Below are positions 2-27,540 of a DNA stretch of 64,000 bases, in pieces. Numbering within the stretch: position 1 is the stretch's first letter; each line of letters opens with the position of its first letter. The stretch lies in contig CP136495.1 of NCBI GenBank assembly GCA_032768795.1, positions 1,552,501 through 1,616,500 on the forward strand, given 5' to 3'. Below the pieces are notes generated by a model. The model was not told where the DNA came from. It made no database searches and saw only the letters and a program-made list of their open reading frames with translations. The position numbers and the translations under genes were made by a program. Source of the stretch: Tremella fuciformis. Its lineage: Eukaryota; Basidiomycota; Tremellomycetes; Tremellales; Tremellaceae.

Positions 2-1089
2 GAGCTTGCTCCGCATAATCCAGCTCACCAGTTGGTGCACGGAGGGTCGACATCTGGCGTAGTGATCAGCCAAGTCAAAGAGGGACACTACTCCACTGTG
101 AAGGCAACCTTCGTTCTTCTAGACGTCATCCTTGCCGATGCGGAAATCCCAGTTTTCGGGTTCGATGTTATTTTCACGAGTACTGAATCGCTTGATCAGC
201 GTGAGTTGCATTCTCGAACCCCTCTGAGCTTGGCTTTCGGGTTTGCAACGAGCTGATATCTGTCAGAGGCCGACGCACGCCAACAGCCTGCAAACAATGA
301 GGTTAGCCCCGTTCGCGAAGGAGTTATCGTTGATGACTAGTCCAAACAAGTCTCAGTGATGCAGCGCGTACGTCAGAGGTCGTCTCGGATTGCAGCCAGC
401 ATTGCCAGGAGAAGCACTCAGGTCTGGCGCTCGATCAATACGCAACAGCGTGCACAGCCCACACTACAGGGGCCCGTTGTGATGTGTTACGGTCCGGCCG
501 AGGTGTTGGGTCGGCCTACCACGGTGAACGTTCAGAAGAAACGACGCACCCGAGTAGAGCCAAAAGTGAAATTCAACGGAGTAGGCGTTGAAGGGGTTGG
601 AATGGAATCGGGAACGAGACTGGATTTCACCACCGAGAACTGCCCATATATCCGTCTTGCCAAGATCTCGAGCGGAGTCCGGGTTCGAGCTGCCGGTGCA
701 AAGATTGTGTCAGGAGGCTGTCCGACACGGTTCCGAGTTGCCTTCGTCGTCGCTCATCCGGGACCCGTGGACATTCAGGTCATCAGAGACGAGACCTGCT
801 TCAGCGACTTCCTCCACTGGGCTTCAGCGCCCGTCAAGAGAACCCTCCGGGACACCACTCGAGGCGGAACGATCGCCACTGCGGCAACTTGCGTGTATGG
901 CGAAGCGTGCGAGGAGCGCCCAGATTGCCGACAGCTTCACCCGTATCACATGACTCCCGGAGTCTGGAAAGAGAGGCTTATTCTTCCCCTCAGGGGTTTT
1001 GACGACCCTTCGAATGATGAGGTGAGTCAGTCAGCGCATGAGCAGGTGCTGATAAGCTATAGCACTGGGTTACCTATTGCTTCGAGTGA
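2..1089 (+). CDS. Unknown-family protein, copy A (5' partial)
   Basis: I do not recognise a named family. The frame is open from base 2, so the 5' end may lie outside the window. Proposed exons are 2-200, 267-301, 365-1021 and 1063-1089, joined by GT-AG introns. The N-terminal exon has a K-x-G-x-Y-x4-A motif (KEGHY) followed by hydrophobic beta-like stretches. The middle has a YGP motif. The C-terminal part has three cysteines leading into PYHMTPGVW (890-967). All three motifs recur in copies B (25210-25963) and C (26484-27540), so the three are paralogs. The last tiny exon begins after an intron at the same place as in B and C and encodes a matching WV dipeptide. No signal peptide or membrane helix is visible in the part seen. 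The intron model is mine; without splicing the large exon would run on to 1165. Confidence 0.62.
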
Positions 1090-1555
1090 ATCTCTGAGAA
1101 CTTACGATGGGTATCAGATCATAACCAATCGCGAATGCATCAGTGCAGGGCATGGGTATTGTTAGTGGGAGTCATATGGCCAGCCCCAGACGAGGACGCA
1201 GAGTACAAATCGCTATCACGCTGCTGACAGTTGTGAGCATGGCGACAGGAAGGCGGGCAGGAAGGCCCACGATTTGCAGTAGGGCCGGAATGAAACCCAT
1301 GTGGCAACAGAGGGAGAGGCCGCGAGTGGTCTGTACGTGGAAGATACAGTCAAGTCTTCGAACAGTTGATGGTAGTTCGGTGACTTTTGCCCGAATGTCT
1401 CGTCGAGTCACCGTCCTTTGCTGTTGACGGCAAAATGTGCCACATTCGAAGTGCCACACTCAGCCTGTCGTCGGTTGACGCGACTGTCGCTGGACAGGAG
1501 CGTCCACCAGACCTCATATGATGCAGCGAGCATCACTGACTGCCTCGTTCGCGAG
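1090..1555. other. Intergenic region upstream of Ku80
   Basis: No coding exon could be supported here. Open frames on both strands are short and lack splice-consistent homology. The stretch holds the 3' flank of copy A and the presumed promoter of Ku80. Confidence 0.5.
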
Positions 1556-4500
1556 ATGCCTTCGGACAGGGCTGGGTATACCTTGTCGATATTCGCCATC
1601 GATGTCTCGCCTTCCATGGGGGAGAAGCGCGAGGACGTGGGGAGCTCGACCAAGAGGACAAAGTTGAGCCTTGCCAAGGAGTATGTGGCGAGACGATGCG
1701 AGCCAAAGGTCAGTGCCGCTCTGGCCAGAAGATGGGTTCTGACCGAAAAGATCTCATCAGGACGCAAGACCGAAGTGGTCGGCATACTGTCTTATGGTGG
1801 TCGTGAGTGTTTGCCGTCGCCCAGAGGGATGTGTCTCATCCATCAAGGGAGCAACAACCAGGCCCATCACGACTATGTGGCCAAGAACCCGGACGATGAG
1901 GAACCCATGTACGCGCATGTCTCATGTGACGTCGCTGCGCAGACAGCCAAGCCGAAGATCGTGGAGGTGGTGATGAACCTGGAAGTTGGGGAGCATGAAG
2001 GCAATCGTGGGTTTAATGCCGAGGCCCAGGTATCAGCTGAGAGGCAGCCGTATCCGCCCTCATGGTAGCGCTCGACATGGTCGCGACGCACAAACATACA
2101 AAGAGCTGGGCGCTGGAGGTCAATCTCATCACAGATGGTGAGGACGAATCGCCGTGCCCGAGCGTCCGTTAAAGTGTAGGCGAGAGTTCTTTTGCTCAGG
2201 GGGAGTACGAAGATGCCATGGAACGATTCGACGACATGGGGGTGCAGCTCAATGTCATGTGCGTACCCTCATAGCTACAGGCATGAGCTCATCGTCAGTG
2301 GGATCGGTTTTGACGAGCCTTCCGTGCCGGTAGATAAGACCAAGTCCCGCGCCAAAGTGAGCGTAACTCTAGGCAACATCTCGCCGAGCTAATGGGCAGC
2401 GTCTGTCGGAGAAGTTCTGGCGGATCTTTGTGGAGCAGCTCCATGAGAGGATATCTCGTACCACTCAGGCTGAGGAGATACTGCCTACTCTGTGCACCTT
2501 CGATCCGGCCCTCACTGAGGCTCGTATGCCCAGACCAAATATTGTCAATTCGGCTGTCACGGCGATCGATCTCAAGATCGGTTCCCCCGACGTCAACGAA
2601 GACCAAGCCATAACAATTCCGATCAAATACTCGAAAGCGACAATGAAGGCCAGACCACCATCGCTGTCCAAAGCCTGGAAACCGGCAATGGATCTGCAGG
2701 TACCGATGACATCTCAGGCGTACGGCAGCTATGGTGCGCCGAGTCAGCTGTTGACCAGCTTGACACAGCAGTCCCAGTCGCAATCGGACAAGCCGCCTGT
2801 AGCGAGCGATCTTGCCGCCATGATTTCCGCGGACGTCAAAGCACACAGCACTTACGTACTCAAGCGACACGAAGATGAAACAACGGACGGCGCTCCGGCG
2901 GGGACGCAGAGAGGCACACAGGATGCAGATGAGCCAGATGAGGAGGGTGGTCCGGGCTTGCCAGAGGGGGGAGAGGAGGAGGAAGTCGTCGCTCAGGAGG
3001 ATATCGTCAAAGCATGGCGTTTCGGCTCGACCTGGGTGCCCATGGAGAAAGACACTTTTGATCCGCTGGATACCAAGAAAGGCATCGAGGTCTTGGGCTT
3101 CTTTCCTCGAGAGAATGTGGGTCCGACGTCTGCATGCGAGTCTGGGGCTAACAATCGCAGATCCACCGACACATGCTCATGGGCGAAGTTCGGTTCATGT
3201 GGCCCGACATGACATCACCCAAAGCTCAGCTTCAATTCTCGTCCTTGGTCGAAGGCATGTATCTGAGGGAGATGGCGGCTGTTGTGCGTTGGGTCCTGAA
3301 AGACAACGCCGAGCCGGTCATAGGGGTCTGTGTGCCAGAGTTCAACTATCCCGGAGAGGAGAAGCGTCTTGATTATATGTTTTGGGTTCAGGTGCGAATC
3401 GCTGCAGCTCAGCTCACTGGTCCGCTGGCTGATGCCCTAGCTTCCGTTCGCCGAGGACGAGCACAACTTCTGGTTCCCGTCGTTGACCAACTACAAGACT
3501 CATTCTGGCAAGACCATTACCGAGCATCCCCTTCTGCCCACAGATGAACAGTGCGAGCTCATGGACCGCCTGGTGGAGGGCCTGGATCTGGACGCGTACG
3601 CTCAATCCACTTCGAGCGGTCGACTGCCACCGAGAGTCGCGGTCAACGCCGATGGAGATGAGGACATCAAGCCGGATGTGGAGGGCGAGGAAGCGGACTT
3701 TGTGCCTTGGTTCGAGCCAGGCAAATCGTACAACCCAGCCATACATCGAGTTAAGGAGGCCATTTTTCACGCTTCGCTCACTGCCGATCTCAGCGAAGAT
3801 CCCCTCGGCCCACCGCATCCCGAGCTTGTCAAATACTTCTACACTCCCGAAGAACTGGTCGCGGATACGGTCAAAGTCACCGCACAGCTCAAGGATGCGC
3901 TGGACGTCAAAAAGATCCCTCCTAAGCAGAGAAAGAAAGCCGCCAAGGAGGGGCTGAGAGAGGGCGAGGGATAGTCCGTTACCTCTTTGTGTCGTACGAC
4001 TTATGCTGATGATCAGCATCGACATCGACGAGCTGTTCGATGAGCCAAGTCAGGCAGGACCTTCTCAAAAGGGCAAAGCAGAGCCTATCAGCCCTCAACA
4101 ATCACTCAGGCCGGTCAAGGATGAGCCTTTTTCTCCCACTCAGCGCAAGACAGCTGGGGATCGACGAGAGAACGAAGCACAGCCGAGTCCCAGCAAGCCC
4201 AAGAAGGGCCGTCTCGTCTCGAATGAGACACCCCTGGAGGACTTCAATGCTCTCATCGAAGGAGAGGGTGACGTGTTCCGGAAGGCCATCCAGGATCTGG
4301 GCGCCGTTGTCAAAGAGAATATTGCAGCCTCGTTCTCTCGGTCTGCATTTCCGCTAGCCATTGACTGTCTAAAGGCCATGCGCTCGACAGCTTTGACGTA
4401 TGAGGAAGTGGAGACGTATAATGAGTAAGTTGACATTGTCGCCACCAGTTCATCAGCTCATGTGTGCCAGATTTGTCGATGAGCTCGATGGTTTCGTCAA

Positions 4501-4763
4501 TACGCCTGGATTCAAGCACAAAGACTTCTGGAAAGGCAAGTCTGCCGCGGTCCCCTGTGAATTAGCTGACAACCAGCCTTTGAGAAGGCAGGCAAGGAGG
4601 TTAGTAAGATCTCCCAAGAGGAGGCCAAGGAAGCTCTGGAGGGGTACGAGTAGTTTCATCCCTGTTGTAAACCATTTTACTGTATACGTCAAGCAGCCGC
4701 TCCTCCTGTATGTAGGCACTTTACGACGAGGACTTCCACCTCTTCTCGAATGTGTCAGCCTGA
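1556..4763 (+). CDS. KU80: Ku80-like DNA end-binding protein (NHEJ)
   Basis: This is the large subunit of the Ku heterodimer, which binds broken DNA ends in the nucleus for non-homologous end joining and acts at telomeres. The start at 1556 begins an N-terminal von Willebrand A-like domain (FAIDVSPSMGE), followed by pieces of that domain such as NLITDG. A central beta-barrel segment (KAWRFGSTWVPM, GIEVLGFF) follows, with an acidic loop just before it. Next comes a conserved region with NPAIHRVKEA, and then a helical C-terminal domain (about 4210-4760) resembling the Ku80 C-terminal domain. At least eight short introns interrupt it; the first, 1709-1750, is only 42 bp and carries CTGAC. The stop at 4763 gives the end FSNVSA. 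An alternative last intron starting near 4753 could extend the protein to about 4940. As placed, the end overlaps the LAMTOR2 gene on the other strand by 9 bp. Confidence 0.85.
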
Positions 4764-5346
4764 GCCATCAGCTTGAGACGTGACATTATGCAGGTAGGAG
4801 CTCACGGCCGATATGAGGGCTGACCAAGGCACTGTACTCGTCGCGTTCAACACGAGGATGAAGGACAATGGCAGGACAGATCGTAATGTCGGTATTTGGG
4901 CATCAGGCGGCGGCGTCTCGGGCTTCGCAAGGGATATTTGACGAAGCAGAAGTCTTCCCAGCTACAAGCTCAGCTCAATGATAGTTCTTGTTGCCGCAAC
5001 GTACCTCGCACTCGACTCTGGGAGACGCGTCTTCCTCCCACTGACTCGCCAAACCCGATAACAACCTCAATCTCTCCGGATCTTCCAGCCACGGCTCCTC
5101 TTCCTCCCCATCAGCATCATCGCCATCCTCCGTGTCATGTCCATTTGCTCTGACAACGCCATCCTGCTCGCCTTCATCCCCATCCGCCGAGTGAAAGTTG
5201 GAGGCCCAAGAAAACACCTGGCCTTGCGGGGCGATAAGAAGGGCAGTGTGTGGACCCGACGCAGGAGCGAGCCCGTTCGAGCTCGAGCTGCTGGATGCAA
5301 GGCAGGCGCTGAGGTCTTGGTGTACTCGAGTGGGGCTGAGGAGCAT
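4755..5346 (-). CDS. LAMTOR2-like Roadblock/LC7 protein (Ragulator/EGO complex)
   Basis: This is probably the Roadblock subunit of the lysosomal or vacuolar Ragulator scaffold that anchors Rag GTPases for TORC1 signalling. Exons are 5005-5346 and 4961-4755 with a 43-bp intron whose branch is CTGAG, giving 182 residues. The N-terminus reads MLLSPTRVHQDLSACL, followed by TALLIAPQGQVFSWAS. This matches the family pattern of a helix followed by a hydrophobic strand ending in a glycine-rich turn. A roughly 35-residue acidic insert (many D and E) follows, which is not in animal LAMTOR2 (about 125 aa). Exon 2 supplies CELGRLL and SFILVLNATSTVPW, the expected second half of the fold. An in-frame stop at 5356-5358 excludes the longer upstream frame. 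The gene is divergent from UGGT with about 170 bp between the starts. Assignment is by pattern, not by search. Confidence 0.68.
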
Positions 5347-5518
5347 TTTGCCTTTCTATAGTATGCGAGTCGAGTGAAGCAACGGACCAAGCTTGGACCA
5401 CCAATAGACCAGCTTCTCGGGCAAGTCGGATGGAGCCCCAGATTCTATAGTGACGTGGTGGGCAGACAATTCCAGCGATGACCGTTCAACGCGTCCACAG
5501 TCTCGAGTATCGACAAGC

Positions 5519-8500
5519 ATGAGGTGGGGCGTCGCTGCGTGGCTGGCGGGCGCAGTGCTGGCGAGGGCCAGCACGGAATCGCACCCGCTCAGCATACAGC
5601 TCGAAACGGCCTGGCCGGCGGTGCCCATAGCGCTGGAAATTCTGTCAGTCTTCTTTCATTCTTTCCTCGACTCGCGGCACTTTGTCCGCGTTGGGCATTC
5701 ATAGATGCTCGTACATGCGCCCAGCTGACATGTAGCGAGACTGCATACGATGAGAATCCTGCCTCGTACCTCCCCTTGCTCCGACTCCTCACTGCTCTCC
5801 CTCCACACCTGTCTGACCGCGATGTGCTCGCCTCTGCCAGTGAACTCATCACTTCACACTCTCTCCTCCCAGAAACGAGCTTGGCGACCTTTGAGTATGC
5901 CTTGGGACTGCATTTCGCCGCGCCGAAGGTCGAGGCCTTCTTCAGCTGGTACGACAACCACGAGTGGTCGGAGTTGGTCGCAGCGAAGGATGATTGCGGC
6001 AGTTGGGTCGAGTGGCGGGGCAAGGGGTTTTGCACTGCAGGAGAGCTGCGGAGGGATATCGAGATGAGCATAGAGGATGGCGACCATCACTTGTGAGCTG
6101 CGCCACTCTGAATTTGGCTTCCTAGCTCATGGTAGGGGCGCTTCCACCATTCATTACCTCCCATTCGACCACCACTCTCACCCCAACGACAGACCGTCTC
6201 AAGCCGTCTTCTACTACGATGTGGCCGATGTGACCAATTCTGGGGCCCTTCTGAGCTATCTGGACCATCATGCTTCCCAGGATCCGGCATTCGGTTACAT
6301 CGTCCGTTACGCTCCACCTTCCGGCAGGGATGTGGAGAAGAAGACAACGCTGTCGGGATATGGCGTGGAGATGGTTCTGAAGAAGACCGACTATCTCGTT
6401 GTAGACGACCGTGCACCGACCTCAGGCCAGTTGGAGGAGCAGACACCTTTGAATCATGGTGATGGGGAATCGAGCAACGAGTCGTTCTTCGGCGAAGTGC
6501 TGGGAGACGACCCGTGGGCGGAGCTCGCCAATCCCCTCCAAAGATTCGAGATGGGATGTAAGTCGACTGCCAAGCCTTTTGCTCGTCAGCACTAATCCTC
6601 AGCCCTGGGAGTCTTTGCGTCGGCCCTCATCAAGTCGCATCCCCGCCCGCTGGATGCTTTGTTGCACCTCGCTGAAGACTTTCCCAAGTACTCGGCGGCC
6701 GTTGCGAGACGGGTCGACGTGCCTAGGGAGATTGCGAGGCGCGTCGATCAGCTCGCTCACAGGGGCCAAGCAACTCCGTCTCTCATCATCAACGGTCGGC
6801 CATTCAAGGACGGAGAGATCAATGCTTTCTCGTCGGTCCCACCTTGTCTACCGTACGTGTATCTATGCTTACTGTCAGGCTGTTAAACGTATTGCGTGAA
6901 GAGCGAAATCACATCCTGTCCCTTGTCTCACTTGGCTTGACCCCAAAGCAAGCCTTCGAGCTCCTCACCGATCCCCTGATTGGACAGGCCCAAGTCGAAG
7001 ACGATCCGACAGAGGGGCTAGTCGATGCGAGTGACCGTGAAGAGGGTGGCGGTGTCATCACTTATTGGAATGATATCGAAAAGGACAAGAGGTCAGCACT
7101 CTCATCCAGAGTGCAAGCCTGAGCTGACTCGTAGGTATGCGCAGTGGCCTAAAAGCATGCAAGGAGTCAGCCCCGATCTCTACCTAGTCTGACATCGACT
7201 GACATGCGAAGTTCGTCCGTCCGACGTATCCTGGACAGTTCCACCCGATCCGGCGCAATGTGTGGAACTTGGTGTTTGTGCTCGACCTATCTCTTGGACC
7301 ATCTCTCGATATCATGGCCTCGTCGATCTCCGCAATGATACAGCGCAATGTCCCCCTACGGTTCGGAGTCGTCCCCATGATCACCCCGGGCGAAGAAGAC
7401 ATATGTAGGTCAACCCGCATGATGTCCACAGTATTCCACTTATCCGCAGCGAGACAAATGGCCCGTCTGTTCCTATATAGCGTAAAGAATCTCGGGCGTG
7501 GTGCCACAAGGGACATGTTGATCGAGATTCTCAAGGTCACCCCTTCGACACCGTCGAGCCCAGGCAAGGTCAAGCTGGAGACTGCAGAGCGTGCCTACCG
7601 TTGGATATCCGCTCAGCTTGAAAAGGAGGTATTACCCTTTGAGCAGGTCATCCGGTTGGACGAGCTGGATGAACAACTGGTGAAGATTGAATCGTATATG
7701 ACTCGATTGAGTGCAACCAGAGAAGACTCGCCTGTCGGTCATCTGTTCATCAATGGCAAGCACACGCCCTGCGGGGGAGTGAGTCTGTCCTGATGGTTCG
7801 GAAGCCAACGTGCTCATCTATAGCACTGGGCACAAATCGTTCAGAACGAGCTGCAGAACCTGCTAGGCTTCTTACAAGGAGCTGTACAGTTGTTCTTCGT
7901 GCCGTTATACTTGCTGATCCCAGATCATCAACAAGGTGGACATGGAAGACCCGGCGCACTTCTTTTATGATCTGCCGTCGACGAGCAAGAGTCGAAATAC
8001 ACTCATAGTCCCCTCCCAGCCTGACAGCAAATTACGGGCATTCAGCTTGCCTGATCTTTTTGCCCAGGATACCACAGAGAAGTTGGCCCACAGCTTCGTA
8101 TATGCCGGTAGGTGACAGTCACGCACGATCAGGGGATGAGGCTGAGGTCCCCAGATCCATACAGCCATGCGCCTATTACAATATGGGTCATCGCTGATAT
8201 GGACACCCAACAAGGTCGAGCGACCGTGAGAAGCGCGATCCAGAATCTGGAGAATCCTCTGAATCTTGCTCGTGTCGGTTTCGTGCACACCCCTTCTGCG
8301 CGGGCGACCAGCTCGACATCAGACGCGCCGTCGTTGTCGACCATTATATACCAGCTCGTGGCCACCTCTCAGCTTAGCTCGCTGACTCCGGGCCAATTCC
8401 TCGAATTGCTCGATGCTGTCGAGTCTACCGCTATCGAAGAAGCAGGTCTACCCGCCAACTCTCCTCTGCATGCATTCTCCTCGGGAGGCTGGAGTGTGGC

Positions 8501-11346
8501 CGATGAAGCGGCGGCTGCCAAATTCTGGGAGGTAGGCTCGAGCATTACAAAGAAGCTCAAGGTCCGATCTGCTGCGCCGCATCTACTGGTCAATGGGAGA
8601 GTGAGTGATCGCGAAGCTCGGGTGTCTTGGCGATTGATTGCAGCTCGTCGGACCGATCACTGGCAAACTTTTCACCGCCGGGGACTTCCAAAGTCTTGCC
8701 ACATACGAATATCGCAAACGCAACAAGGCAGTCATTGACGCGGTCATGACCATGTACGACAACGTCGATGCTTTCGATCGGTGAGTCATGAAGCGTTTGG
8801 GTGTTCGGTACTTACATGCAGTCAAACCCTGGCGAGCTTGGTCGCCTCCATCTCGTCTGTCGTCACCGTTGCCTATCTCCCGCCCGGAAACGAAGGCATC
8901 TTCCAGCCCGAGCCGGCCCCGCGAAGCAGGTGGTATGAGCAGCTGGATGATGGGGCTATGTAACTATTACCTACACATACTGTTCACAGCTTATAGCAGG
9001 TCCTTCACCCATGGAGATCAGGAAACTGCGCTCATCCGGGTCGCAGCAGTGCTGGATCCGATTTCGGAGACGGCTCAGAAATGGGCGCCTTTATTGAAGG
9101 TTAGTTCTTCATATGACAACTCTGAAGAGATCACTGATTCCAAGACCCTATCTACTATGAGTCACGTAGCCGTTTCAGTCTACCTCGAGCCAGATTTGGC
9201 CGCTACCGATGTGAGTGCGAAGACGGCAATGGTCCGAAGCTGACACTGCAGCTCAAGCTCAAACGCTTCTACCGGTCTTCGATCGCCCCGGGTCCGCAAT
9301 TTGACGTTGACGGGTTAGTGCTTGGAATGTTGCTGGGTATGAGAGCCGATGGGTTACAGAAAATCCGTTGCTCCTCCTGTCACCTTTTCCGACCTGCCAG
9401 CATCTCCCATCTTCACGCTTGGGCTCGACATTCCTCCTTCATGGATCGTGTCGCCCAAGACGTCGCCGCTTGACTTGGACAACCTGGTCATCTCATCGTT
9501 GTCCAGCCCTACCAGTGTCCTCTTTGAACTGAAGCAACTCCTCATTGAGGGGCATGCTCGAGAGGCGTCCAATGCTCCTCCACGTGGTCTACAACTGCAC
9601 CTTACACAACGTGGCCTCGAGGTATCTGATACGCTGGTCATGGCGAACTTGGGCTATCTGCAATTCAAAGTCACTCCTGGTGTCTATGATCTCTCCATCC
9701 GTCCCGGTCGAGGTCAGGAAGTGTACGAACTCGAGTCTGTTGGCAATGATGGCTGGGACAGTTTGAGCGTCAACGCCACGGGAACAGAAGTCATCTTGAC
9801 GTCCTTCGAGGGCGTCACCATTCTGCCCCGTTTCGTCAGACGCCCGGGTATGGAGACGGCCGATGTTCTCACCGAGCGCGGTCCCCTCGCAGATACCAGC
9901 TACGCAGGAGCAGTTTTCTCGAGGTGAGCAATGCCTTCAAGACGACGGTGTCGGCTAACGCCGCAGGATGAAGGAGATGATTGGCCTGAAAGATGAACAT
10001 AAGTCGGTAGAAAAGACGAGGCATGCCGATATCAATATCTTCACTGTCGCCTCTGGCCTGCTTTATGAGGTGAGCTGTCGCATCCGCCCAATTCAAGCTC
10101 ATAAGTAGCGCTTCGCCTCCATTATGGTCCTTAGTGTGATGAAGCACACGACTTCGACTGTGAAGTTCTGGTTCATCGTCAGTCTCAAAGCTTTGGGTTG
10201 ATGTCATTGTGCTGAAGTGCCAGGAAAACTTCCTTTCGCCGACTTTCCTCGCTTTCCTACCACATTTGGCGAAGGAGTATGGTTTCGAGTACGAGCTGGT
10301 CACATACAAATGGCCGTCTTGGCTGCGGGCCCAGACGGAGAAACAGCGCATTATCTGGGCGTGGGTCATCTGGTATCGCCCTTACCAGGCTGCTGGCTGA
10401 CTCTCCAGATACAAAATTCTTTTCTTGGACGTGCTTTTCCCCATGGACCTTGACAAAGTCATCTTTGTAGATGCCGACCAAATTGTCCGGACGGATATGA
10501 AAGAGCTCGTGGATGTGGATCTGCACGGCCGCGTGTACGGCTATGCCCCGATGGGCGACGACCGAGAGGAGATGGAAGGCTTCAGGTTCTGGAAGACGGG
10601 CTACTGGAAGGAGGCACTGCGAGGCAGGCCATACCATATCAGGTAAGGATCACTGGGCCTCCGGCCTCGACTAGCCTCAAGGACGCTCACTATCAGCGCG
10701 CTTTACGTTGTAGACTTGAAGCGATTCAGACAAGTGAGCGATCGCCCCTAAGGACAGCTCACAAGGCTCACATCAGCTCGCGACGGGCGATAGGCTTCGA
10801 GGACAATACCATGCCCTTTCGGCTGATCCGAATTCTCTCGCAAACCTCGACCAGGACCTGCCGAACTCGATGCAAGATACGATACCCATCTTCACGCTTG
10901 ATCAAGACTGGCTATGGTGTCAGACGTGGTGTAGTGACGAGTCACTCGCTCGAGCCAAGACGAGTGGGTCCAAATATGATGTGAGAGGCGACGCTGACGA
11001 GCAGTCGACCTCTGCCAGAATCCCTTGACGGTCAGGTGCTTGATCCCGCATAGAATTGGAGCTGACGTGGCAGAAAGAGCCCAAGCTTGTTCGGGCGCGA
11101 CAGATTCCCGAGTGGGACGCGTATGATCGTGAGATTGCTGCTCTTGCTGCGAGAGTGGAAGGTGCCGGCGGCGCCCTTGCCGCAAGCGTGGATGATCTTG
11201 CTGCGGACAAGGGTGGCAGTGGGCCGGTGGGAGAGAACGAGGAAGATCTTGGCATTAGTGATGCTGCTAGTGAGCTTGAGCAGGAGGCCGGGGAGGTGCT
11301 GGAGGAAGAGACGGGGCAGAGCAGACGGATTGAGGATGAACTATGA
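5519..11346 (+). CDS. UDP-glucose:glycoprotein glucosyltransferase (ER folding sensor)
   Basis: This enzyme re-glucosylates misfolded N-glycoproteins in the ER lumen so that they rebind calnexin. The protein starts with a hydrophobic signal peptide ([15 protein letters not shown]). Exon 1 ends at 5643 and exon 2 starts at 5736. Long thioredoxin-like lumenal domains follow, with recognisable UGGT blocks such as [15 protein letters not shown] and [10 protein letters not shown]. The C-terminal glycosyltransferase domain (about 10,020-11,050) has [15 protein letters not shown], the metal-binding DxD within [13 protein letters not shown], and [11 protein letters not shown]. The last residues, RIEDEL, look like a DEL-type ER retrieval signal. 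The gene is cut by more than ten short introns. The total size fits the family (about 1,500 residues). Yeast Kre5 is the relative, but the intact catalytic motifs point to a functional UGGT. Confidence 0.93.
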
Positions 11347-17132: not shown

Positions 17133-19190
17133 CTACCCTTGATGCGCTACGGTTGGGGCCTCGCCCTTTGCCGCTTGGACCCAGTATGACCCGCCGGGGA
17201 AGGTGTAGTCTTCAATTGACTGGTCGTACATTTCGATCGAGTACCCGCCTTTCGGGTCGGTGGGTACGCTGCCATCAGTCCAAGCTCACAACTGCGCCCC
17301 TGGGAGGGCTCACTTGTATCGCCCTTCCGAGTTGATCGAGACGGGGTAAAGGAAGTGCTCGTGCAGGTGGCTACCGGTGAGCAGGGATGGACATCATCAA
17401 GGAAATAAACCCACTCTACATATTCCAAGACGTTGCGCTCCATATCGCCCGACACGCAGATATAGTCGATCAAACTCAGGTGGATCTTCTCTCAGCAGAG
17501 TCACTTGGGATATGAGCAGTGTCACTCACAACGTATTCGCAGAGTCCGACACCGCCGGCATGTGGGCACACTGGAACGCCGAACTTGGCGCTCATGAGCA
17601 GGACGGCGAGAATCTCGTTGACTCCTCCCAAGCGACACGAGTCGATCTGGCACACGTCGATCGCGTCGAGCTGCAAGAGCTGCTTGAACATCATCTGGAA
17701 GTCAGCTGGCGCGCCCAGAGGGCGACGTAGAGGAGAACGAGGACTCACTCGGTTATGTGCGTGCTCCCCGGTGGCGACACCTATCCGAAGTGGCTTGAGA
17801 GCCTTGCGAATGGCTGCGTGGCCGACAGCGTCGTCTGGTGCGGTTGGCTCCTCGATGAACCATGGTCGGAGCGGTTCTAGCTTGTGCATGTACTGAATAG
17901 CCTGTGGAACGTCCCATACCTCTTCTATGTCAGCGAGGAGAAGAACGATCTGATGCGGGGACGAACGGTTGGCGTCCACCATAAGGACACATCCTGTTGG
18001 TCCGGCATTCTTTCCCTCAATTGTCTTCGGGTCAACGGGGGGACGATCAGAAGGGATGTTGGCGGGGTCGTCGATGATACTTCGCAGCAGAGTCCCGCGG
18101 CGAAGGTCGTCCTCTGGGTCGGCACCGACTTTAAGCTGAGGTCAGCTCTGGGAAAAACCAGCACAAAGCTCGGTGCGGCTTGCCTTGAAGTGGTTGAAGC
18201 CTTGGGCCAGAGCTGATTTGGTCAAGCGCTCGACTTTCTCGTCCGAATATCCTATATCGTCAGCTTCGTCGGTGATACAAGTCGGACTGACCCAGCCATC
18301 CCACACTGGTCGTGTATGCTGGATAGCCTCTTCGCATCACTTCCTCTTCTCGCGCCTTCTTACCCGCCTCGTTCTTCTTGAGGAGGGCGAGCGCCTCATC
18401 AGGCGTGAGCGCGTCCGTGATGTATCGCCACGACACGGCTTTAACGAATCTGCAATTAGTGATGCCCAGATTGAGAGGAGCAGGAAGCTCACTCTTCCGG
18501 TGTGAAATCGCAGATGAGCTTCCACAGTGGTTTCCCACGAGCTTTGGCATACATATCCCACAAGGCATTTGACACGGCTGCTGTGGCGAGGTGGATGACG
18601 CCCTTCTCTGGTCCGAGCCAGCGGTGCTGCGGATCTCCAACCACTGACTGTCAGCGGGCATGCTTGGGGGACGTGTACTGTAAGCCATACGAAAGTTCCA
18701 AAACGCCCCCATGTCTGCGAAGATCTCCTCGACGTCTTTGCCCACTATACGCTTGGCGACCTCTTGTATTGCGAAGCAGACCTGCGGTTAGCATCTCCCA
18801 TGACTTAGTCATGATAATCACTATCTCGTTTCCTCGTCCGATGGCTGATCATCAGCGTTGCCCCTTGGGCTCCAGGACAACCCACTGAATGTCATGCCCT
18901 GCCCCTTCAGCGCTGAGGTGGTGGTCACCTCGATATACGCCGCCGAATAGTCGCACTCTTTGTTCCTGATGTCAGGAGCTATCCTAGCCCTATTCATTGA
19001 CAGCATCTCACATGGCATCTGTACCGTCTCCGCTGACATTCTGTTCGGTCAGTCTAGCCATCTCCCTCCCGGAGGCCGCCTCACAGTCGGGAAGCGGACA
19101 TCTGCCGCGTGAGCTGTCCTCATGTGCCGGCTAAGAGCATGTCAGCTCACCGTGAACCGTGAAGCCAGAAATCTTTGCGCCATGTGACAT
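17133..19190 (-). CDS. LGD1: L-galactonate dehydratase (enolase superfamily)
   Basis: This enzyme dehydrates L-galactonate to 2-keto-3-deoxy-L-galactonate, the second step of fungal D-galacturonate (pectin) catabolism. It belongs to the fuconate-dehydratase/ENOSF1 branch of the enolase superfamily. The start at 19190 gives MSHGAKISGF. Two short introns lead to ADVRFPT and then NVSGDGTDAM and CDYSAAY, matching the known N-terminal pattern. Visible catalytic elements are HFKVKVG (the K-x-K base), LMVDAN (metal Asp), WFIEEPTAPDD (metal Glu), ATGEH (third Glu) and CPHAGGVGL (His base). The end is GEAPTVAHQG. About nine introns. No other galacturonate-pathway gene lies beside it here. A fuconate dehydratase role is the main alternative. 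Confidence 0.88.
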
Positions 19191-19801
19191 TCTGCGACTG
19201 TTCTTCTTCTTGACAGGCCGGTCTCACAGGAAAGAAGCACGACACATATAGATTCCCCGCATGAACAGTGAGCTCGTCACTCGGTAGATCCGGGCCGACC
19301 CATCATGCGGGGGTGGGGGAATTGATCCCGAATTTGATCGGCGACCGCCGCTCGGGCGATGGTGTGGGACCCTGACCGTGTCAACTGGTCTTATTGTTCG
19401 TCGACCCTCAGCTGTTCATTGTACTCTGTCACACCCTCGTCTCGCCCCTTTCGGAAGACTCTACAAGAGAACAATGAGACGAGCTGCCAGGGGAGGCAGG
19501 AGTCATCGCTGGGGCGGCAGAAAAGAAGAAGAGAAGCAGCTAGGTCCAAGGCGCCGCGAGGCGCTTCGGCATGAGATCATGAGACGCTACAGAAATGTCG
19601 AACAGCTTCTGCTGTTCAATCACTACTGACAAGTCCTCACCCACACCTCTTGACGATCCTCACCGCCGTATCATCACCTCACCTCGACGCTCAACATAGC
19701 AGGCACAAGAGCTCAGACAGGACCGTCCGTTGGGCGAGAATCTACACAACGCTAAACGAGGGACCTTGATCGATTGTCAAAGGAAGCATCCATAGTTCAA
19801 C
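19191..19801. other. Divergent promoter region, LGD1 / ABC transporter
   Basis: This 611-bp spacer lies between two divergent starts. Small open frames occur at 19,359-19,629 but have no splice-consistent extension or recognisable domain. I see no RNA gene or repeat. Confidence 0.45.
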
Positions 19802-22800
19802 ATGGAGGCATCTTCGTCTACCCAGCATCGTCCTTCTCCATCATCAATCGCCACGCCGTCTACCCCGCCACCTAGGCATGCGGCTGCCTCACATACTTCC
19901 CCTGCCCGACCCCAATCCCAGCGCCCGCCCTCTCGAAGCTCACTCTACCCGCCAGTCGCCTCGATAAGAAGTACGCATACGGACAAGACAGCCAGTCCCA
20001 GGACGCCGCCTCGTGCCCCGGCCTCGACCACACGCTCCCTCACCACCCCACCCACGCTCCAGCGGGCAATCAATACCTCTCTTCCAGTCTCCCCGCCCAC
20101 GTCCCACTCTGCCTATCGTACACCGCCATCCGCCTATTCTGCCCGGCTCGAGACACTGGAGCTGACACCGCTCTCGAGGAAGAGTCAGCTGAGAGAAGAG
20201 GATTCGCCATTTCACGATCGGCATTCGATCGTTGCGGACGAGCCCAACCAGCTGGACGACCCCTTCGAATATTCTCATGCCAGGAGTATGAGCGGGGGTA
20301 GTGGTGGGCGGCAGAGGACCATGGACGGCTACAAGTTTGCCTCCTTGTCTCCGCCAGCCCGCAGTGAGAAGGAAGAGGTGCTCGGATATTCCGCTGGCGA
20401 GCTGCACGAGGTCCTCGAACGACCGATCTCAGAGTACAGACGCTCGCTCTATCCCTCTCAACCTCCCATACCCATAACGACCATTGAGCAGCACCCCGAC
20501 CTGCTACCGTCTCGGAGCACTCGGAAACCCTCCAAGCCGCCTGCAAACACGATCAAGCCCTCTTTCCGCACCCTCTTCTCCCTCGCAAGACGAAAAGACT
20601 ACCTCCTCAACTTCATTCCAGGCCTCATCCTCGCCTTCGCATCCGGCCTGGTTCCCCCGTACATGTCTTCGGTTGTCGGTGACGCCTTCCAAGTCTTCGA
20701 GTCATACCCGCTTGACGACATTGCCACGGACGCACAGCGAGCCGCTTTCACGTCCGGCATTCAGTCCACCTGCATTAAGCTGACAGTGGCTGGTGTACTC
20801 GGAGTCGTCTTCAATTACCTGAAAACTGTTGCCTGGATCCGACATGGGGAGACGCATGTTGGCAGGTTACGGCAGGCAGTCTACGAGGGAATGCAGCGCA
20901 AGGGAATGGAGTGGTTCGACTTGGGAATGGGGATGAACGACAAGTCGGGCGTGTCCGAACAGAACGGCGAGACAGTTGGAGCAGCAGGTGTCATGTCCAA
21001 GTTCACCAGGTCAGCTACCATCGGATAAGGGTGACACAGCTGACCCTCTAGAGAGACGGACGAAGTCCGCATTGCCACCTCCCAAGCGATGGGATTGGCT
21101 TTTACAAATGCGGCTATCTTCATCTTCGGCTTCATCCTCGCCATGATCACGTCTCCCAAACTCACTCTTGTGACTTTGTCCACGATACCTTTGCTCGTCG
21201 TTGTACAGATCATCACACAGTTCGTCGTTGGTCCCCTATTTGCAAATGAGCGTCGAGCCATGGCAGAGGCGTCGACCAACATCGAGCGCGCGACCACTGC
21301 CATCGCGACCGTCAAAGCGCACAACGCGCAAGCAAGCGAGACGACACGATTCGATAAGATCGTCTCGCGAGGCAACACCGCCATGGTCAAGCAGGGCCTC
21401 GTATGGGGGTTCATGTTCGCCTCGACTGACTTTCTTTCCCTCGGCACATTCGTAATCGGCTTCTGGTACGGCGCCAAGCTGGTACAGAAGGGCGAGCTGT
21501 CCAACGGAGACGTCATGACTGTCTTCTGGGCGTGTCTCATTGCGGCGGGATACTTGCAAAACATCGTCCCTCAGCTCACACTCATCACCAAGGGCAAAAA
21601 CAGCATGGCATCCCTCCTCACCATGATACAGGATGTCCCGGAACGTCCTCTGTCCGGCTCGTCCTTCTCCACCTCGCCGACATCCTCGACTTTTCCCGGC
21701 AAACGAGCTTCACGGCGACCCACTAGCTTGCAGAAGATCCGCCCGCCTAGGTGTCGAGGCGAATTCAACTTTCGCAACGTCCAGTTTTCGTACCCATCCC
21801 GACCCGACAATCCGGTCTTGCGAGATGTCACCTTGTTTCTCCCTCCAGGCGAGACGACTTTCGTAGTTGGCGGGTCGGGTTCAGGCAAGTCGACCATCGC
21901 TCAACTCCTTCTGCGTCTGTATGAACCACTCGGCGGGGAAATCACCTTGGACAACCAGTCGTTCGCGTATCTCGATGAAGCCTTTACTAAAGAGCACATC
22001 GCCGCGGTACAGCAGGGCTGCATTCTCTTTGATCTAAGCGTACATGACAATGTCGCAATGGGCCGAGCTGGCTCTGGCCTCAACGCGGAGACGCAGATGC
22101 CGGGGAGTCCGTTGGACGTCACGCGGCAGGAAGTCATTGAGGCGTGCAAGATGGCCATGATTCACGACTTTATCGAGAGCCTTCCAGATGGGTATGAGAC
22201 CAAGTTGGGGACTGGTGGATCGCAGCTCAGCGGCGGGCAGAAACAACGGCTAGCGATAGCTCGAGCGAGAATCCGCAATCCTACCATTCTCATTCTTGGT
22301 ACGTCTTCTGTCTGAGACTCCGGCGTCGCTGATCCCGTAGACGAGGCTACTTCTGCCCTCGACGCGACCTCTCGGGTAGTCGTCTTTGAGAACGTCAAAC
22401 AATGGCGAATTAACAAGACGACCATTGTCATCACTCATGACCTCTCCCAGATCCTGCCTGACGATTTCGTGTACGTGATGAAAGACGGCATTGTCGCCGA
22501 ACAGGGCTTCCGCTCGGACCTCATGCAGAAGACACCGATACATGGACATGATTTCGGCGTCTTCGCCTCCATGGCGGCGGAGCAGGCTGTCGAACCTGTG
22601 CCGCAAAAGTTTGACGACTATGCGGATGGTTCGATGATCGAGGAGATACTCGAGGACGATGCGGACGTTTCGCCTGAATCGAATAGGCGAGACTCGCACT
22701 CCCGACCACACACTCCGAGCTTTGCTGCTGGTATCCGACCGGGAAGCTCGATGTATCTGGATCTCATTGACGAGTATGTCAAAGGCAGCCGCAACTCGAT

Positions 22801-25106
22801 GACGCCCGCGGCAGAAAGAAGAAACTCGCGACGGATGAGCAATGCGCAGAAACGTCTCAGCTGGTCGCCTCAAGAGCTCGACCGTCGGGCTAGTCGTTCT
22901 AGTTTGGTTCACAGACCCCCTTCCATGGCCCGTCCGGCGTCCGCGACCAGCTTGCGTGTCTCGAGGCAACTGTTTCCTCCTTCCTCGTACGACCTTCACC
23001 GTACCAACTCGTCTTTAGAGTCTGGCCTCAGCCCCTCCCCCTTCATCGAGAAGGATGGACGTCTCTCTGTCGTTCCATACGACTTTCGCACCCGCACGCT
23101 GTCCCAGAACCTTGACGACGAGCTCAAAGCGTCCGACGTCGAGATCGTTCCTCATACTCCGCCGACCGAGGTCGAACCGGTTCCATCTATCTTCAAGCTG
23201 TTGTATCGGTACTACCCGACACTTGTCCGCCGATACCTGCTGGTCTTTGGCGTCGTGGCCTCGATCTGCCATGGCGTCGCCACGCCCTTCTGGGCATCCT
23301 ACCTATCCAAGCTCATGCAGTGTGCAGGGACGGGCACGACTGGATCCGAATTGACGAAATACGCCCTCATTGTGCTTGCACTGTGCGGTGCTCAGGCAGC
23401 ATCCGACTTTTTCCAGCAGTACTGCCTCTACGCCGCATCCGCCCACTGGTCGACATCGCTTCGCACTACTGCCTACACCGGCATGATGCGTCAAGACAAG
23501 AGCTGGTTCGACAAGTCCGAGAACGCGCCTTCGAATCTGGTGCAGATGTTGGTGAAAGATACAGACGATATCAGGGCTCTGGCCAGTACTGTTGTGGGCA
23601 AATTTGTGGTCTTTGTCGTCATGGTTTCTCTTGGCATTATCTGGGCGATCGTAGTTGACTGGCGACTAACGTTGTGTGGAGTCGCTCTGGCACCAGTGTT
23701 TGCGGGAGTCATGATGACGAACGAGTCGTTGATTGGCAAGGCGGAAGTGCGTAACAAGGCCAAGCGCGAAGCCCTCGCCAAGGTCTTCTACGAGGTCAGC
23801 TAGCTTTTGAGCCCGTGATGCGTAGCTGACGTTTCAGAGCATCGCCAATATCCGTGGAATACGCGCTATGGCACTTGACGGTATTTTCCGAGAGAGGTTT
23901 GACCGAGATGCGGCTTTGGCAAGGAGGGGCGGTCGGCGAGATGCCTGGAGTGTCGCTGTTGGCGCTGGCATGTCGGGTGGAATGATGATGTTCTGCCAGG
24001 GTGGGTCGTCTTTGTGCAGGGCGGGGTCGTGCTGATCAACAGCACTTCTGAACTGGGCGGGGTATCGGTTTATTCTGAATGGGTGGCTGAACTATGTGCG
24101 GATGCTGCAGGTGTACAACCTCGTCCTGTTCTCCCTGACGTTTGCGACGCAGATGCTGGATTTTAGTGAGTTCTGTCTTGTGTCGACTGGACAGAGATCA
24201 GCAGAAGTGAGTCTAGGCTGACAACAGTCCCAACGATGAGTAAGGCCAAAGTCGCCGCACGGGACTTTTATCGCCTCGTCACCCTGCCCATCACCACGCT
24301 GGAGACAAGCGGAGACCTGCGCTTCCCCATCACCGGCAACGTCAAATTCGACCACGTCTCATTCTCTTACCCAACCCGACCTGACGTGCCTATCCTGATC
24401 GACCTTTCGTTCTCCCTCACGCCAGGCGAGTGCGTGGCCGTTGTCGGCCCCTCGGGGTCGGGCAAGTCGACCATCGCCGCTCTTCTGCAACGATTATACG
24501 AGCCGACTACCGGCAAGATTCACATGGACCGTTTCGATCTCAGCCGATCAGACGTCAAGTGGCTCAGGAACCACATCGCCGTCGTTTCGCAGAGCGCAAA
24601 CCTCTTCGACGCCAGTGTGGCAGACAATATTGCCTACGGTAGCGATGTGCCGATGGGCGAAATACACCGTGCAGCTCAAGCAGCCAACATACACGACTTT
24701 ATCCAGTCCCTGCCCCAAGGCTACGACACGAACCTCGGCGAGAACGCCAGCTTGATCTCGGGTGGTCAGGCACAGCGACTGCAGATTGCTCGGGCGCTGG
24801 TCAGGCGGTCAAATATCCTCATCCTGGACGAATGCACCAGTGCTCTGGACGTCGACAATCAGCGCGCTGTGCTGGATACGATAGTCAGGATCAAAGATGT
24901 GAGCGGCTCCACTTTGGCCAATGACACAGCGCTCATGTTAGACCCGCACTACCGTCTTCATCACACATAGTGTCGAGGCCATGAAGCGGTGCGACAGGAT
25001 CATCTGCATAGGCGATGGCAGAGTCGCGGAGGAAGGCTCGTTTGACGAGTTGACAAGGAGGGGAGGCGTATTCGCCCAGCTTATGCGGACGGGCGAGTGG
25101 GAGTAG
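19802..25106 (+). CDS. STE6: Full-length ABCB transporter, Ste6-like (a-factor exporter)
   Basis: This is a TMD-NBD-TMD-NBD exporter. A roughly 250-residue Ser/Pro/Thr-rich cytosolic extension precedes the first membrane domain. NBD1 has Walker A GGSGSGKST, signature QLSGGQKQR and, across an intron near 22,300-22,340, Walker B ILDEATSALD. It is followed by TTIVITHDLSQI and DFVYVMKDG, which resemble the Ste6 pattern after NBD1. A Ser/Arg-rich linker leads to TMD2. NBD2 has GPSGSGKST, LISGGQAQR and LILDECTSALD, and the last intron ends just before TRTTVFITHS. Exon 1 is 19802-21009 and exon 2 starts at 21052. The stop is at 25104-25106. Both NBDs keep all catalytic motifs. In mating fungi Ste6 exports the farnesylated pheromone; a general multidrug exporter is the alternative. 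Confidence 0.78.
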
Positions 25107-25209
25107 GTGTCATATAGACAAAGTGTCATTGTTGTACGAAAAGTATCCTACCGCTCTACATTTTCAGACCTATGAAGTCTAGAGGGCGCTCCGCGCGCAA
25201 TTGGGTCGA

Positions 25210-25963
25210 TCACGAGCTCTCCTGCTGCTGTGGTGAAGCTTGCTTAGTCGAGTAGCGCACCCACTGCTTGGCGTCAGCGTCGGAAAGTCACAGTGGCGGC
25301 GGGTGAACTCACTGTTGGATTTGATTCGCCGGCGATGCGGTCGACCGCCCAACGGGCGAAGAGCTTGTGCCAGAATGCCGGAGACATGTGGTCGGGTCCG
25401 AATTCGCTGCAGGACGTATGACAGTCTTGCTCGCCTCTGGCACACGTCGGCATGGGGTGGAACTCAGTCGCCAGATCGATGAACAGCGGAATGGCATCGA
25501 ATCTGACGAGCGCGAGCAGACGCTGCAAGGTGTCGTAGGTTGCGTAGACCGTCAGGCGGATGATGCTCGAGTGGACAACCACCATGCCCATTGTCAGCCG
25601 GAACGGGACGGCGACGTTTCCGGGCTGGCTCCTCGTCACCGTCAGTTGAAGCCCGCCTGCCGGCGTCTCGCGCATCTCGATGCTGGCCGGAACCTTGACT
25701 TTCGCCCTCGGGGGCGACACGATATGTGCCGGCCCGTACGCAGCGAGAGAGAACGGCTTGTTAGACGGGTCGGCCACCGTGGACGGCTGCGCGCTGCCGA
25801 TCTCAAAGTCGAAGCGGGTCTGACGGATGCTTTTGGTCATGGCTTCGGTGATCTCGACAAGAAGGTACGAGGCCAGTTGGGACTCGTACGTGCCCTGCTT
25901 GAGGGAGATGAGTTCTACCTGCATCTCGTTGCGCTGTCCGAAACGGGCGTGACACGACGACAT
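25210..25963 (-). CDS. Unknown-family protein, copy B
   Basis: This is a 234-residue paralog of copies A and C. Exons are 25313-25963 and 25210-25263, joined across a 49-bp intron with CTGAC. The N-terminal motif is LKQGTY followed by x4-A. The middle has AAYGPAHI. The C-terminal motif (25370-25444) is C-x6-C-x3-C followed by SEFGPDHMSPAFW. The small last exon encodes WVRYSTKQ. The start at 25963 (MSSCHARF) was chosen because the conserved region begins soon after it. An open frame continues upstream to 26155, but that part has no similarity to A or C. It lacks the roughly 100-residue low-complexity insert present in C. It is divergent from C and converges on the ABC transporter with about 100 bp between stops. 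Function unknown. Confidence 0.7.
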
Positions 25964-26483
25964 GAGGACGGTTCCTGAATCTGGCGAGTGATCTGGTATC
26001 CATATGGTCCTTGTGAACAATGGCGAGTGCTGTATCTTCCTCCACAACATCTCGAGTCGTCTCAAGAGGGGTGCTTCGGGACTGCTTGTTGCTGAGCATC
26101 TAAGCTGTGACAAACAAAGTGGTAGCCTCATGATCAAAGGAGACACCGCTTGCACCTGACGAGAGTCGCCAGATCAGCGCTCGTTTACAGCGGCGAGGCC
26201 GCAACGGGGGAGGCCAGGCCTCGCCAGAAACACGTTGTCAGCCTTCCTTCATAACGCCCCCACCGCCTGCGCAAGCGGAGACGATTACGCGAGCTCTCAT
26301 TTCCCTATAAGTCCAGCTTCTGGGTGACTAACTTCGTACGGTCGGGTCAAGAAAATTTCGGACAGGTAAGTGCTCACACAAGGACTCGCAGATGCGGTTT
26401 AGTCAAAACACAGCGCTGACAGAGGAGCCTGTAGCTCACGCCGTGATCCCAGAGCGCTCGTTACATCCTCGTGTTCCCTCGAG
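25964..26483. promoter_or_regulatory. Shared divergent spacer of paralogs B and C
   Basis: A 520-bp gap separates the two divergent starts, so it should contain both promoters. A TTTCCCTATAAG sequence near 26,301 could serve as a TATA-type element, which is inference only. No repeat or RNA gene is apparent. Confidence 0.35.
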
Positions 26484-27540
26484 ATGTCCTTCCATCGCTA
26501 CGTCTTGTCGGTGGCACCCCCGACTGGTACTCGTACCTTCTTCTCGGGGTCCTTTGAATTGACGACCGACAACATCTTCATCCGCCTCTTGAAGATCAAG
26601 CGAGGCACGTACGATGGCTCGCCCGCCAGCTTGGTCCTCTTCAACGTCAACCTCGGCCCATTGGAACGCGCCTACTTCGAGTACGCCATCACAGTCGAAC
26701 AGGTCATAATGACAGGCGATCCAGCTCAGATTGCTCCTGCTGGCCCACTTCCAGCAGTTCCTATCAGTCCCATGCCATTCGGGACTTCAAATCCCGGCTT
26801 GACGCAAAACCTTGCGCACGGTGCTAGCTCACTTTTCTCGAAGGCCCTCAACGCTGGCGACAAGCTGTTTCGATCTGCCGTTCTGCCTGGTCTACGCAGA
26901 CTGGAAGCAATGGCGGGTCGGAAGACCAAGGGTCAACCTGTGGATATCGCGGCGGTCGGTCCATGGTACATCAAAGGTCCAGACAGCCCTTTCCCTCATT
27001 CGATCACGCGCACGACATTAACGTCTTCCGGACGTTGTGAGACGCGATATACGTACCCAACCACCCCCGGGCCGAGCATGTGTATGGAATGCGACAACGA
27101 CCGGCATTCAATCCGTGTAGTGATGTCCGGTTCACCGGAAGGAGCGACTGGAGCGCCGCGGATTTCGACAATCGCATTGGTGATCCCTCACAGAGGCCCC
27201 GTGGCGATTCACGTGAAGTACGTTGGGTCTCTTTTCGAGAACGTCAAGAGCCACTCCAAGCCGCAGATTCTCACCGGACTTGAAGCTGCCGCTGGGAATG
27301 CAAATCTGGTGACTTGCGGCGTTCAGCCCTGCACTCCTGACTGCTCGGAGTTTGGCCCTGCCCATATGACGCCCGCAGTCTGGAAAAACCTTTTGGCTAC
27401 AGAAGATGTCGCGGCTTACGATGGCGAATCTGGCCATCAGGTGGGCGCTGTGGTTTCCAGCATCGCTGCAAAGCTGACTCCTCAAGGCCTGGGTAATGCA
27501 CCTGGAAAGGAGCGACGATGATGAGAACACTACCGCTTAG
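26484..27540 (+). CDS. Unknown-family protein, copy C
   Basis: This is a 336-residue paralog of A and B. Exons are 26484-27440 and 27487-27540, with a 46-bp intron containing CTGAC. The N-terminal motif is IKRGTYDGSPASLVLFNV. A roughly 90-residue Ala/Pro/Gly-rich insert precedes AAVGPWYI. A predicted beta region contains IALVIPHRGPVAIHV, aligning with AFVVAHPGPVDIQV of copy A. The C-terminal motif (27315-27383) is C-x4-C-x3-C followed by SEFGPAHMTPAVW. The last exon starts AWVMHLER, in line with WV in both paralogs. No signal peptide, membrane helix or catalytic motif is recognisable. The K-x-G-x-Y-x4-A start recalls a large set of uncharacterised fungal proteins. I cannot name the family. 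Confidence 0.75.

What the first reader, a model, noticed from the sequence alone, without database searches (positions are those of the whole stretch)
2..27540. Three-member paralogous family of unknown function within 27 kb
Copies at 2-1089 (+), 25210-25963 (-) and 26484-27540 (+) share an N-terminal K-x-G-x-Y-x4-A motif and a central [YV]GP-x-x-[IV] motif. They also share a C-terminal signature: C-x(4-6)-C-x(3-5)-C-x4-P-x-H-M-[TS]-P-x-x-W. The rest diverges strongly, including a long low-complexity insert only in copy C. The three clustered cysteines before a strictly kept HM-P-W suggest a small metal or disulfide site on a beta-rich fold. I know no named domain with this pattern. Retained signature with rapid divergence elsewhere fits a fast-evolving lineage-specific family, perhaps for interaction, defence or self-recognition; that last step is speculation.
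Basis: partly seen in the sequence, partly recalled or inferred. Interest (0 to 1): 0.78.

Follow-up and report, generated by a model that had tools for sequence, protein, structure and literature searches.

The report
Paired fungal gene cluster, unnamed family
The three look-alike genes are the right-hand end of a roughly 95,000-base cluster of 27 related genes in a fungus, many of them in back-to-back pairs of two protein types that were copied together; what the proteins do is unknown, but the pairing suggests that they work as partners.

Summary
Copies A, B and C sit where stated with the stated motifs. They are the right edge of a cluster of 27 family genes, some truncated, at C6:1484.8-1580.0 kb; 14 further members lie in five other places. 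The copies and members tested gave no significant Pfam, NCBIfam, PADLOC or PDB sequence match. C-C-C-H-x5-W is kept in 34 of 36 C-termini examined.

Two types exist. Type I (B) is compact and starts with a W-x3-Q-[RH]-like motif; type II (A, C) has roughly 20-90 extra residues before the GP motif. All 9 type II genes on C6 lie head to head with a type I gene. Partner divergences correlate (Mantel r 0.65, 2 of 20,000 permutations), so pairs were duplicated as units. A public protein is exactly spliced B. dN/dS is 0.10-0.38 where computable: old and constrained. Low-confidence models give a similar beta-sandwich for both types.

Best reading: intracellular type I/type II partners, probably heteromeric, with a zinc-stabilised C-terminus. 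Partnership and zinc are inferred. A poison-antidote or recognition role is possible but unproven.

The parts
1..200 (+). copy A (type II, C6:1552A): N-terminal coding exon, continuing upstream of the window (K-x-G-x-Y part)
   Evidence: ORF C6:1552418-1552753; donor GTGAGT at 201. No in-frame ATG upstream in this ORF.
357..1021 (+). copy A second exon: insert, GP motif, C3H-W motif
   Evidence: intron 201-356 (156 nt) is the top of 24 possible joins, not confirmed by a transcript
890..967 (+). copy A C-x5-C-x5-C-x6-H-x5-W motif
1063..1089 (+). copy A last exon (HWVTYCFE, stop)
   Evidence: 41-nt intron 1022-1062, the only join
25313..25963 (-). copy B (type I, C6:1577) main exon
   Evidence: identical to residues 1-217 of P0001. 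An upstream in-frame ATG would add the W-x3-Q-[RH] N-terminus; which start is used is not known.
25370..25444 (-). copy B C-x6-C-x3-C-x6-H-x5-W motif
25210..25263 (-). copy B last exon (WVRYSTKQASPQQQESS, stop)
   Evidence: 49-nt intron 25264-25312 with GT..AG ends, spliced form found as P0001
25964..26483 (.). 520-base spacer between the divergent starts of B and C
   Evidence: one of ten such spacers of 282-1296 bases (start codons chosen by eye); no exact 7-10-mer shared beyond random windows
26484..27440 (+). copy C (type II, C6:1578) main exon
27315..27383 (+). copy C C-x4-C-x3-C-x6-H-x5-W motif
27487..27540 (+). copy C last exon (AWVMHLERSDDDENTTA, stop)
   Evidence: 46-nt intron 27441-27486, the first of two joins; no transcript seen

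Best explanation
A large, old, unnamed fungal gene family of intracellular beta-sandwich proteins, each with a C-terminal C3H (probably zinc) element and a following tryptophan. Two forms exist: compact type I (B), and type II (A, C) with an inserted segment, usually net basic, between strands 3 and 4. The working unit is a head-to-head type I/type II gene pair with a common upstream region, so the two proteins are probably made together. I infer that they bind each other as a heteromer through the shared beta-sandwich, that the zinc element fixes the C-terminal helix, and that type II's insert is the targeting or effector part. Shown: the family, cluster, pairing, correlated duplication, constraint, and a spliced public match for B. 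Inferred: co-expression, heteromer, zinc, intracellular location, role of the insert. The biological purpose is open.
For: Cluster of 27 genes. 9 of 9 type II genes on C6 have a type I gene immediately 5' in divergent orientation; shuffling order reached this in 56 of 100,000 trials, strands in 0 of 100,000, types in 15 of 100,000. One pair has the opposite orientation as a unit, and a tenth pair lies on C10. Type I and type II partner distances correlate: r 0.649, 2 of 20,000 permutations for 10 pairs; r 0.669, 15 of 20,000 for the 9 C6 pairs. dS agrees for one duplicated pair: 1.32 for type I, 1.40 for type II. Objective type difference: K-x-G to GP 48-55 in 16 of 16 measurable type I, 74-142 in 9 of 9 measurable type II. 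C3H-W in 34 of 36 C-termini examined. P0001 is the spliced form of B; P0003 matches C1:3646 over 294 residues and then ends in 8 residues that frame does not encode, as splicing would give. No secretion-like N-terminus by hydropathy; 6 of 32 proteins exceed a mean of 1.6 over 19 residues, 5 of them around the strand that carries the conserved V-[HY] motif, one at an N-terminal strand. Similar strand order in the two models.
Against: No interaction, co-expression, localisation or metal data. 9 of 18 type I genes on C6 stand without a type II partner, so type I can exist alone. One couple of pairs is discordant: II_1526/II_1546 are 47% identical while I_1525/I_1544 are 24%, so partners were exchanged at least once. 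In the best tree type II is not one clade, and the branch uniting type I is weak (60/80). No shared spacer motif. The models are poor (pLDDT 50, pTM 0.57 and 0.51).
Confidence: 0.42

Rival explanations
1. An ordinary tandem-expanded family in which head-to-head pairing is only a leftover of how an ancestral divergent duplicate was copied. The two proteins share an upstream region but do not act together.
For: Segmental duplication alone would give the pairing and the correlated distances. Half of the type I genes on C6 are unpaired. No shared spacer motif. The cluster sits in DNA with mobile elements, which favours duplication.
Against: Compared pairs have dS about 1.3 to saturation, yet none of the 9 type II genes on C6 has lost its partner or the divergent orientation, and the one flipped pair has both genes flipped.
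Confidence: 0.33
2. A two-gene poison-antidote (killer) system: type II is the harmful partner and type I the antidote. Hence type II never occurs here without an adjacent type I, while type I persists alone.
For: The asymmetry: 9 of 9 type II paired against 9 of 18 type I on C6; truncated copies, which suggest birth and death (I_1523, I_1549, C10_431, C10_434); nearby mobile elements.
Against: Average constraint rather than positive selection; no toxicity data; wtf killers use one gene with two start sites (abstract start of PMC9762604).
Confidence: 0.12
3. Fungal DNA-binding regulators with a p53/Rel/velvet-like beta-sandwich, acting as heterodimers.
For: p300-p53 complex and p73 DNA-binding-domain chains at Foldseek ranks 9-10 for P0002 (E 0.015, TMq 0.25), Grhl2 at rank 46 for C (E 0.55); a cysteine/histidine site; inserts net positive in 8 of 9 by a rough cut. 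Velvet proteins do heterodimerise (abstract starts).
Against: No velvet or other significant Pfam hit; many unrelated beta-sandwiches score as well or better.
Confidence: 0.09
4. Proteins with the beta-sandwich cap of small pore-forming proteins, type II carrying a membrane-active insert and type I acting as its partner (a two-component arrangement).
Confidence: 0.04

Closest known systems
Divergent HD1/HD2 homeodomain gene pairs of basidiomycete mating loci (abstract start of PMC4915694)
   Same: two different partner genes head to head; from general knowledge (no call) the products heterodimerise and pairs can be multiplied
   Different: no homeobox match in B, C, the second exon of A or the 13 proteins of A1; beta-rich by the models; 27 genes in one cluster
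wtf killer gene family of fission yeast (titles and abstract starts)
   Different: one gene makes both proteins in wtf (PMC9762604 abstract start); here two diverged paralogues; wtf proteins are membrane proteins (recalled); no drive data here
Head-to-head paired plant NLR genes (abstract start of PMC11298796)
   Different: no NLR domain matched; proteins here are about 230-380 residues
Velvet-domain regulators (abstract starts)
   Same: fungal proteins with a Rel-like fold that form selective heterodimers
   Different: no Pfam velvet match; C-terminal C3H-W element; family expanded in clusters
Unnamed ascomycete proteins with K-x-G-[TS]-W and G-x-P-T-E motifs (recalled, from no call)
   Same: I recall a similar order of motifs (lead only)
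   Different: not tested: the protein searches made returned none

Membership tests
the family defined here (type I/type II) | K-x-G near the start of the beta domain | tested here: met
   A, B and C all have it; found in 26 of 29 type I/II proteins assembled, the other 3 being partial assemblies
the family defined here (type I/type II) | C-x(2-9)-C-x(3-14)-C-x6-H-x5-W | tested here: met
   34 of 36 C-termini examined out of 41 loci; exceptions C10_431 (ends early) and C5_1141 (C-x4-H). Not examined: I_1523, I_1549, C10_434 (no C-terminus found), C5:1138874 and C1:3096702 (not fetched)
the family defined here (type I/type II) | shared fold of the copies | tested here: inconclusive
   each of nine P0002 strands overlaps a copy C strand, two of them the same one; C has further strands at 173-178, 198-204 and 274-276; kappa 0.65; pLDDT about 50 and overlapping inputs; A and B not folded
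HD1/HD2 mating-type pairs | homeodomain | tested here: not met
   no such Pfam match in B, C, the second exon of A or A1
HD1/HD2 mating-type pairs | divergent pair of two partner genes | tested here: met
   9 of 9 type II genes on C6
velvet regulators | velvet domain by sequence profile | tested here: not met
   no velvet family listed for B, C, the second exon of A or 13 A1 members at E <= 1
velvet / p53-like fold | Rel or p53-type beta-sandwich | tested here: inconclusive
   weak generic matches only
wtf killers | poison and antidote from one gene by two start sites | tested here: inconclusive
   type I and type II are separate genes, but alternative starts within a gene were not examined
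wtf killers | membrane segments (recalled) | tested here: inconclusive
   6 of 32 proteins pass a 19-residue mean of 1.6 (1.67-1.93), 5 around the strand with the conserved V-[HY] motif, which argues against membrane spans but does not exclude them
poison-antidote systems in general | toxicity of one gene relieved by the other | not testable with these tools
   needs expression and crosses
paired NLRs | nucleotide-binding and repeat domains | tested here: not met
   no Pfam match in B, C, the second exon of A or A1
small beta-pore-forming proteins | cap beta-sandwich fold | tested here: inconclusive
small beta-pore-forming proteins | secretion signal | tested here: inconclusive
   hydropathy only: maximum 1.12 in the first 19-residue windows of 36 sequences, some partial and with starts chosen by eye

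The most novel reading that the evidence does not exclude
A previously unnamed two-component system of fungi: a chromosome cluster built around head-to-head type I/type II gene pairs, in which the insert-bearing type II protein is an effector held in check by its own type I partner. It would serve as a killer (poison-antidote) element or as paired self/non-self recognition, with specificity set by pair and partners occasionally swapped.
Probability: 0.15. Interest if true: 0.85.

Novelty: new variant of a known kind. Interest (0 to 1): 0.58.

Why it matters
Head-to-head pairs of diverged paralogues kept together through old duplications often mark proteins that must be made together (mating-type and immune-receptor genes are known cases). 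A cluster of 27 such genes with a conserved C3H-W signature and no named domain gives a concrete, testable set of candidate partners. The one partner exchange (1525/1526 against 1544/1546) and the unpaired type I genes allow the specificity question to be asked directly.

Tried and rejected
Rejected: chance resemblance. Fast evolution as an average over exons (NG86, synonymous sites near saturation in most comparisons, no site test). A shared exact 7-10-mer in ten spacers (none above random windows). Significant membership of a Pfam, NCBIfam or PADLOC family for the proteins scanned. Relatives in viral or prokaryote contigs, sought with patterns from type I only (no match; 14 pattern matches, none confirmed). 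C1:1173904 is taken as chance: the ORF there looked like an isopropylmalate dehydratase by eye, not by a search. C1:2791138 (E 0.048) was not followed and is not counted.

Full report
What was checked. The window is G000:C6:1552501-1616500 of an unnamed 28.1-Mb genome in 11 contigs. All three copies are present with the stated motifs. Their ends fit a model in which a short intron precedes a last exon: HWVTYCFE (A, stop at 1089), WVRYSTKQASPQQQESS (B, stop at 25210), AWVMHLERSDDDENTTA (C, stop at 27540). The introns are 41, 49 and 46 nt. A mechanical scan of 34 C-terminal ORFs for a join giving W-[VICLTA]-x-[YHFW] found at least one for 20; 3 had no anchor, and 11 had an anchor but no join; several of the listed joins are plainly poor. 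For B the model is confirmed from outside: protein P0001, from a 1,224-base public contig, is exactly the spliced product. P0003, from a 2,889-base contig, is identical to C1:3646 over 294 residues and then ends in 8 residues that this frame does not encode, as splicing would give; I did not locate that exon. Such contigs may be transcripts; the record does not say.

How large the family is. Searching the genome with copies C and B gave 31 and 26 matches at E <= 1. Assembling the loci and scanning stop-to-stop ORFs with a profile of seven compact members gave 27 genes on C6 between 1484.8 and 1580.0 kb, 5 on C10 at 431-438 kb and 3 on C1 at 3644.8-3649.2 kb (ORFs were grouped into genes by eye). 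Further searches added three at C1:160-163 kb, and two on C5 at 1138.9-1142.0 kb and one at C1:3096.7-3097.7 kb. That is 41 loci; the tool calls its counts lower bounds. Some are incomplete: I_1523 and I_1549 show only the N-terminal part, C10_431 ends before the signature, C10_434 shows only the N-terminal part, and no N-terminal part was found for I_1492. The profile found none in the gap C6:1493.8-1523.7, which holds Ty3-type retrotransposon ORFs; bases 1523701-1523834 are not held.

Two types and their pairing. Type I (16 of 16 measurable) has 48-55 residues between K-x-G and the GP motif and an N-terminal [WAV]-x-x-x-Q-[RH]-like motif. Type II (9 of 9 measurable) has 74-142 and lacks that N-terminus. 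The three C1:3644-3649 genes have 47-48, so the insert is probably derived. All 9 type II genes on C6 have a type I gene immediately 5' in divergent orientation. Shuffling gene order gave 9 in 56 of 100,000 trials, shuffling strands in 0 and shuffling types in 15 (order and types were entered by hand before measured them, and I_1523, I_1549, I_1492 and I_1538 could not be measured there). Spacers between chosen start codons are 282-1296 bases (copy A's ATG is not seen, so its spacer is approximate). The pair II_1527/I_1529 has the opposite orientation as a unit. C10_431/C10_433 is a tenth pair, apparently incomplete. On C6 9 of 18 type I genes are unpaired.

Co-duplication. Over 10 pairs, type I distances and type II distances correlate (r 0.649; 2 of 20,000 permutations as high); over the 9 C6 pairs r is 0.669 (15 of 20,000). 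The tree agrees for three couples of pairs: I_1484+I_1488 with II_1486+II_1490, I_1529+I_1550 with II_1527+II_1552A, I_1532+I_1540 with II_1534+II_1541. It disagrees for one: II_1526 and II_1546 are sisters, but I_1525 groups with B (93/94) and I_1544 with I_1537. The unity of type I is weakly supported (60/80), and type II is not one clade in the best tree.

Age and constraint. In ten comparisons over nine gene pairs (two are fragments of one pair, and I_1548/I_1550 is not a closest pair) amino-acid identity was 38-71%. dS was 0.95-4.2 in the eight that could be computed and saturated in two (II_1527/II_1552A and I_1548/I_1550). dN/dS in the eight was 0.10-0.38. With synonymous sites so near saturation these ratios are rough, and sites under positive selection were not tested. 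The two halves of one duplicated pair have similar dS (1.32 and 1.40).

The signature. C-x(2-9)-C-x(3-14)-C-x6-H-x5-W is present in 34 of 36 C-termini examined, including C1:160-163, where it is C-x2-C-x(12-14)-C-x6-H-x5-W. The exceptions are C10_431, which ends early, and C5_1141, where the histidine follows after four residues. Five of the 41 loci were not examined: three with no C-terminus found (I_1523, I_1549, C10_434) and two not fetched. Three conserved cysteines and one histidine in proteins without a secretion-like N-terminus point to zinc rather than disulfides; this is inference. Six of 32 proteins have a hydropathy peak above 1.6; five of these lie around the strand that carries the conserved V-[HY] motif.

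Relatives elsewhere. Three searches of 5.8 billion proteins found four proteins: P0001 and P0003 (identical to this genome's genes, apart from the spliced end), P0002 and P0004 (relatives, 63% to I_1529 and 52% to C1_161). The searches scored 168, 7,155 and 7,995 candidates, the last a capped list. Type II was not used as a query there. The collections searched with patterns are viral and prokaryotic, so absence says little about other fungi.

Interpretation. Shown: an unnamed, old, on average constrained multi-gene family whose 9 type II members on C6 are all paired head to head with type I, and whose pairs largely duplicated together. Inferred: the proteins act as partners, bind zinc, and the insert distinguishes the roles. 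Not known: the purpose. The asymmetry (type II never alone on C6, type I often alone) is what a poison-antidote or effector-inhibitor relation would leave, and equally what a heteromer with a type I that also acts alone would leave.

Noticed in passing
C6:1493.8-1523.7 kb (L065-L067): The cluster is split by retrotransposon DNA: Ty3-type ORFs, one 1,369-residue ORF with a chromodomain, and a second ORF of the same length 7.5 kb on with neighbours of the same sizes (the second was not scanned).
   Followed up: partly
window 52880-58304: ORFs with DUF6570, Helitron-like N and PIF1 helicase domains: a Helitron-type element.
   Followed up: no
window 1376-3372: Ku-domain ORF (2373-3209, Pfam Ku E 7.1e-10) shortly after copy A; the gene spans several frames and its introns were not modelled.
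   Followed up: no
C1:160-163 kb (L073): Array of three diverged relatives with C-x2-C-x(12-14)-C-x6-H-x5-W; P0004 is a relative from another record.
   Followed up: partly
C5:1138874-1141967 and C1:3096702-3097681: A further, more distant branch (45-47% identity between C5:1140936 and C1:3097), possibly an older form of the family.
   Followed up: no
C6 pairs 1525/1526 and 1544/1546: Type II partners are sisters (47% identity) but type I partners are not (24%): a partner exchange within the cluster.
   Followed up: partly
window 1-200 (copy A): No in-frame ATG before the first visible coding exon, although the close paralogue II_1527 has one there; copy A may be damaged or have an unseen upstream exon.
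   Followed up: partly
C10:442385-445999 (L070): Copia-type reverse transcriptase ORF near the C10 cluster.
   Followed up: no
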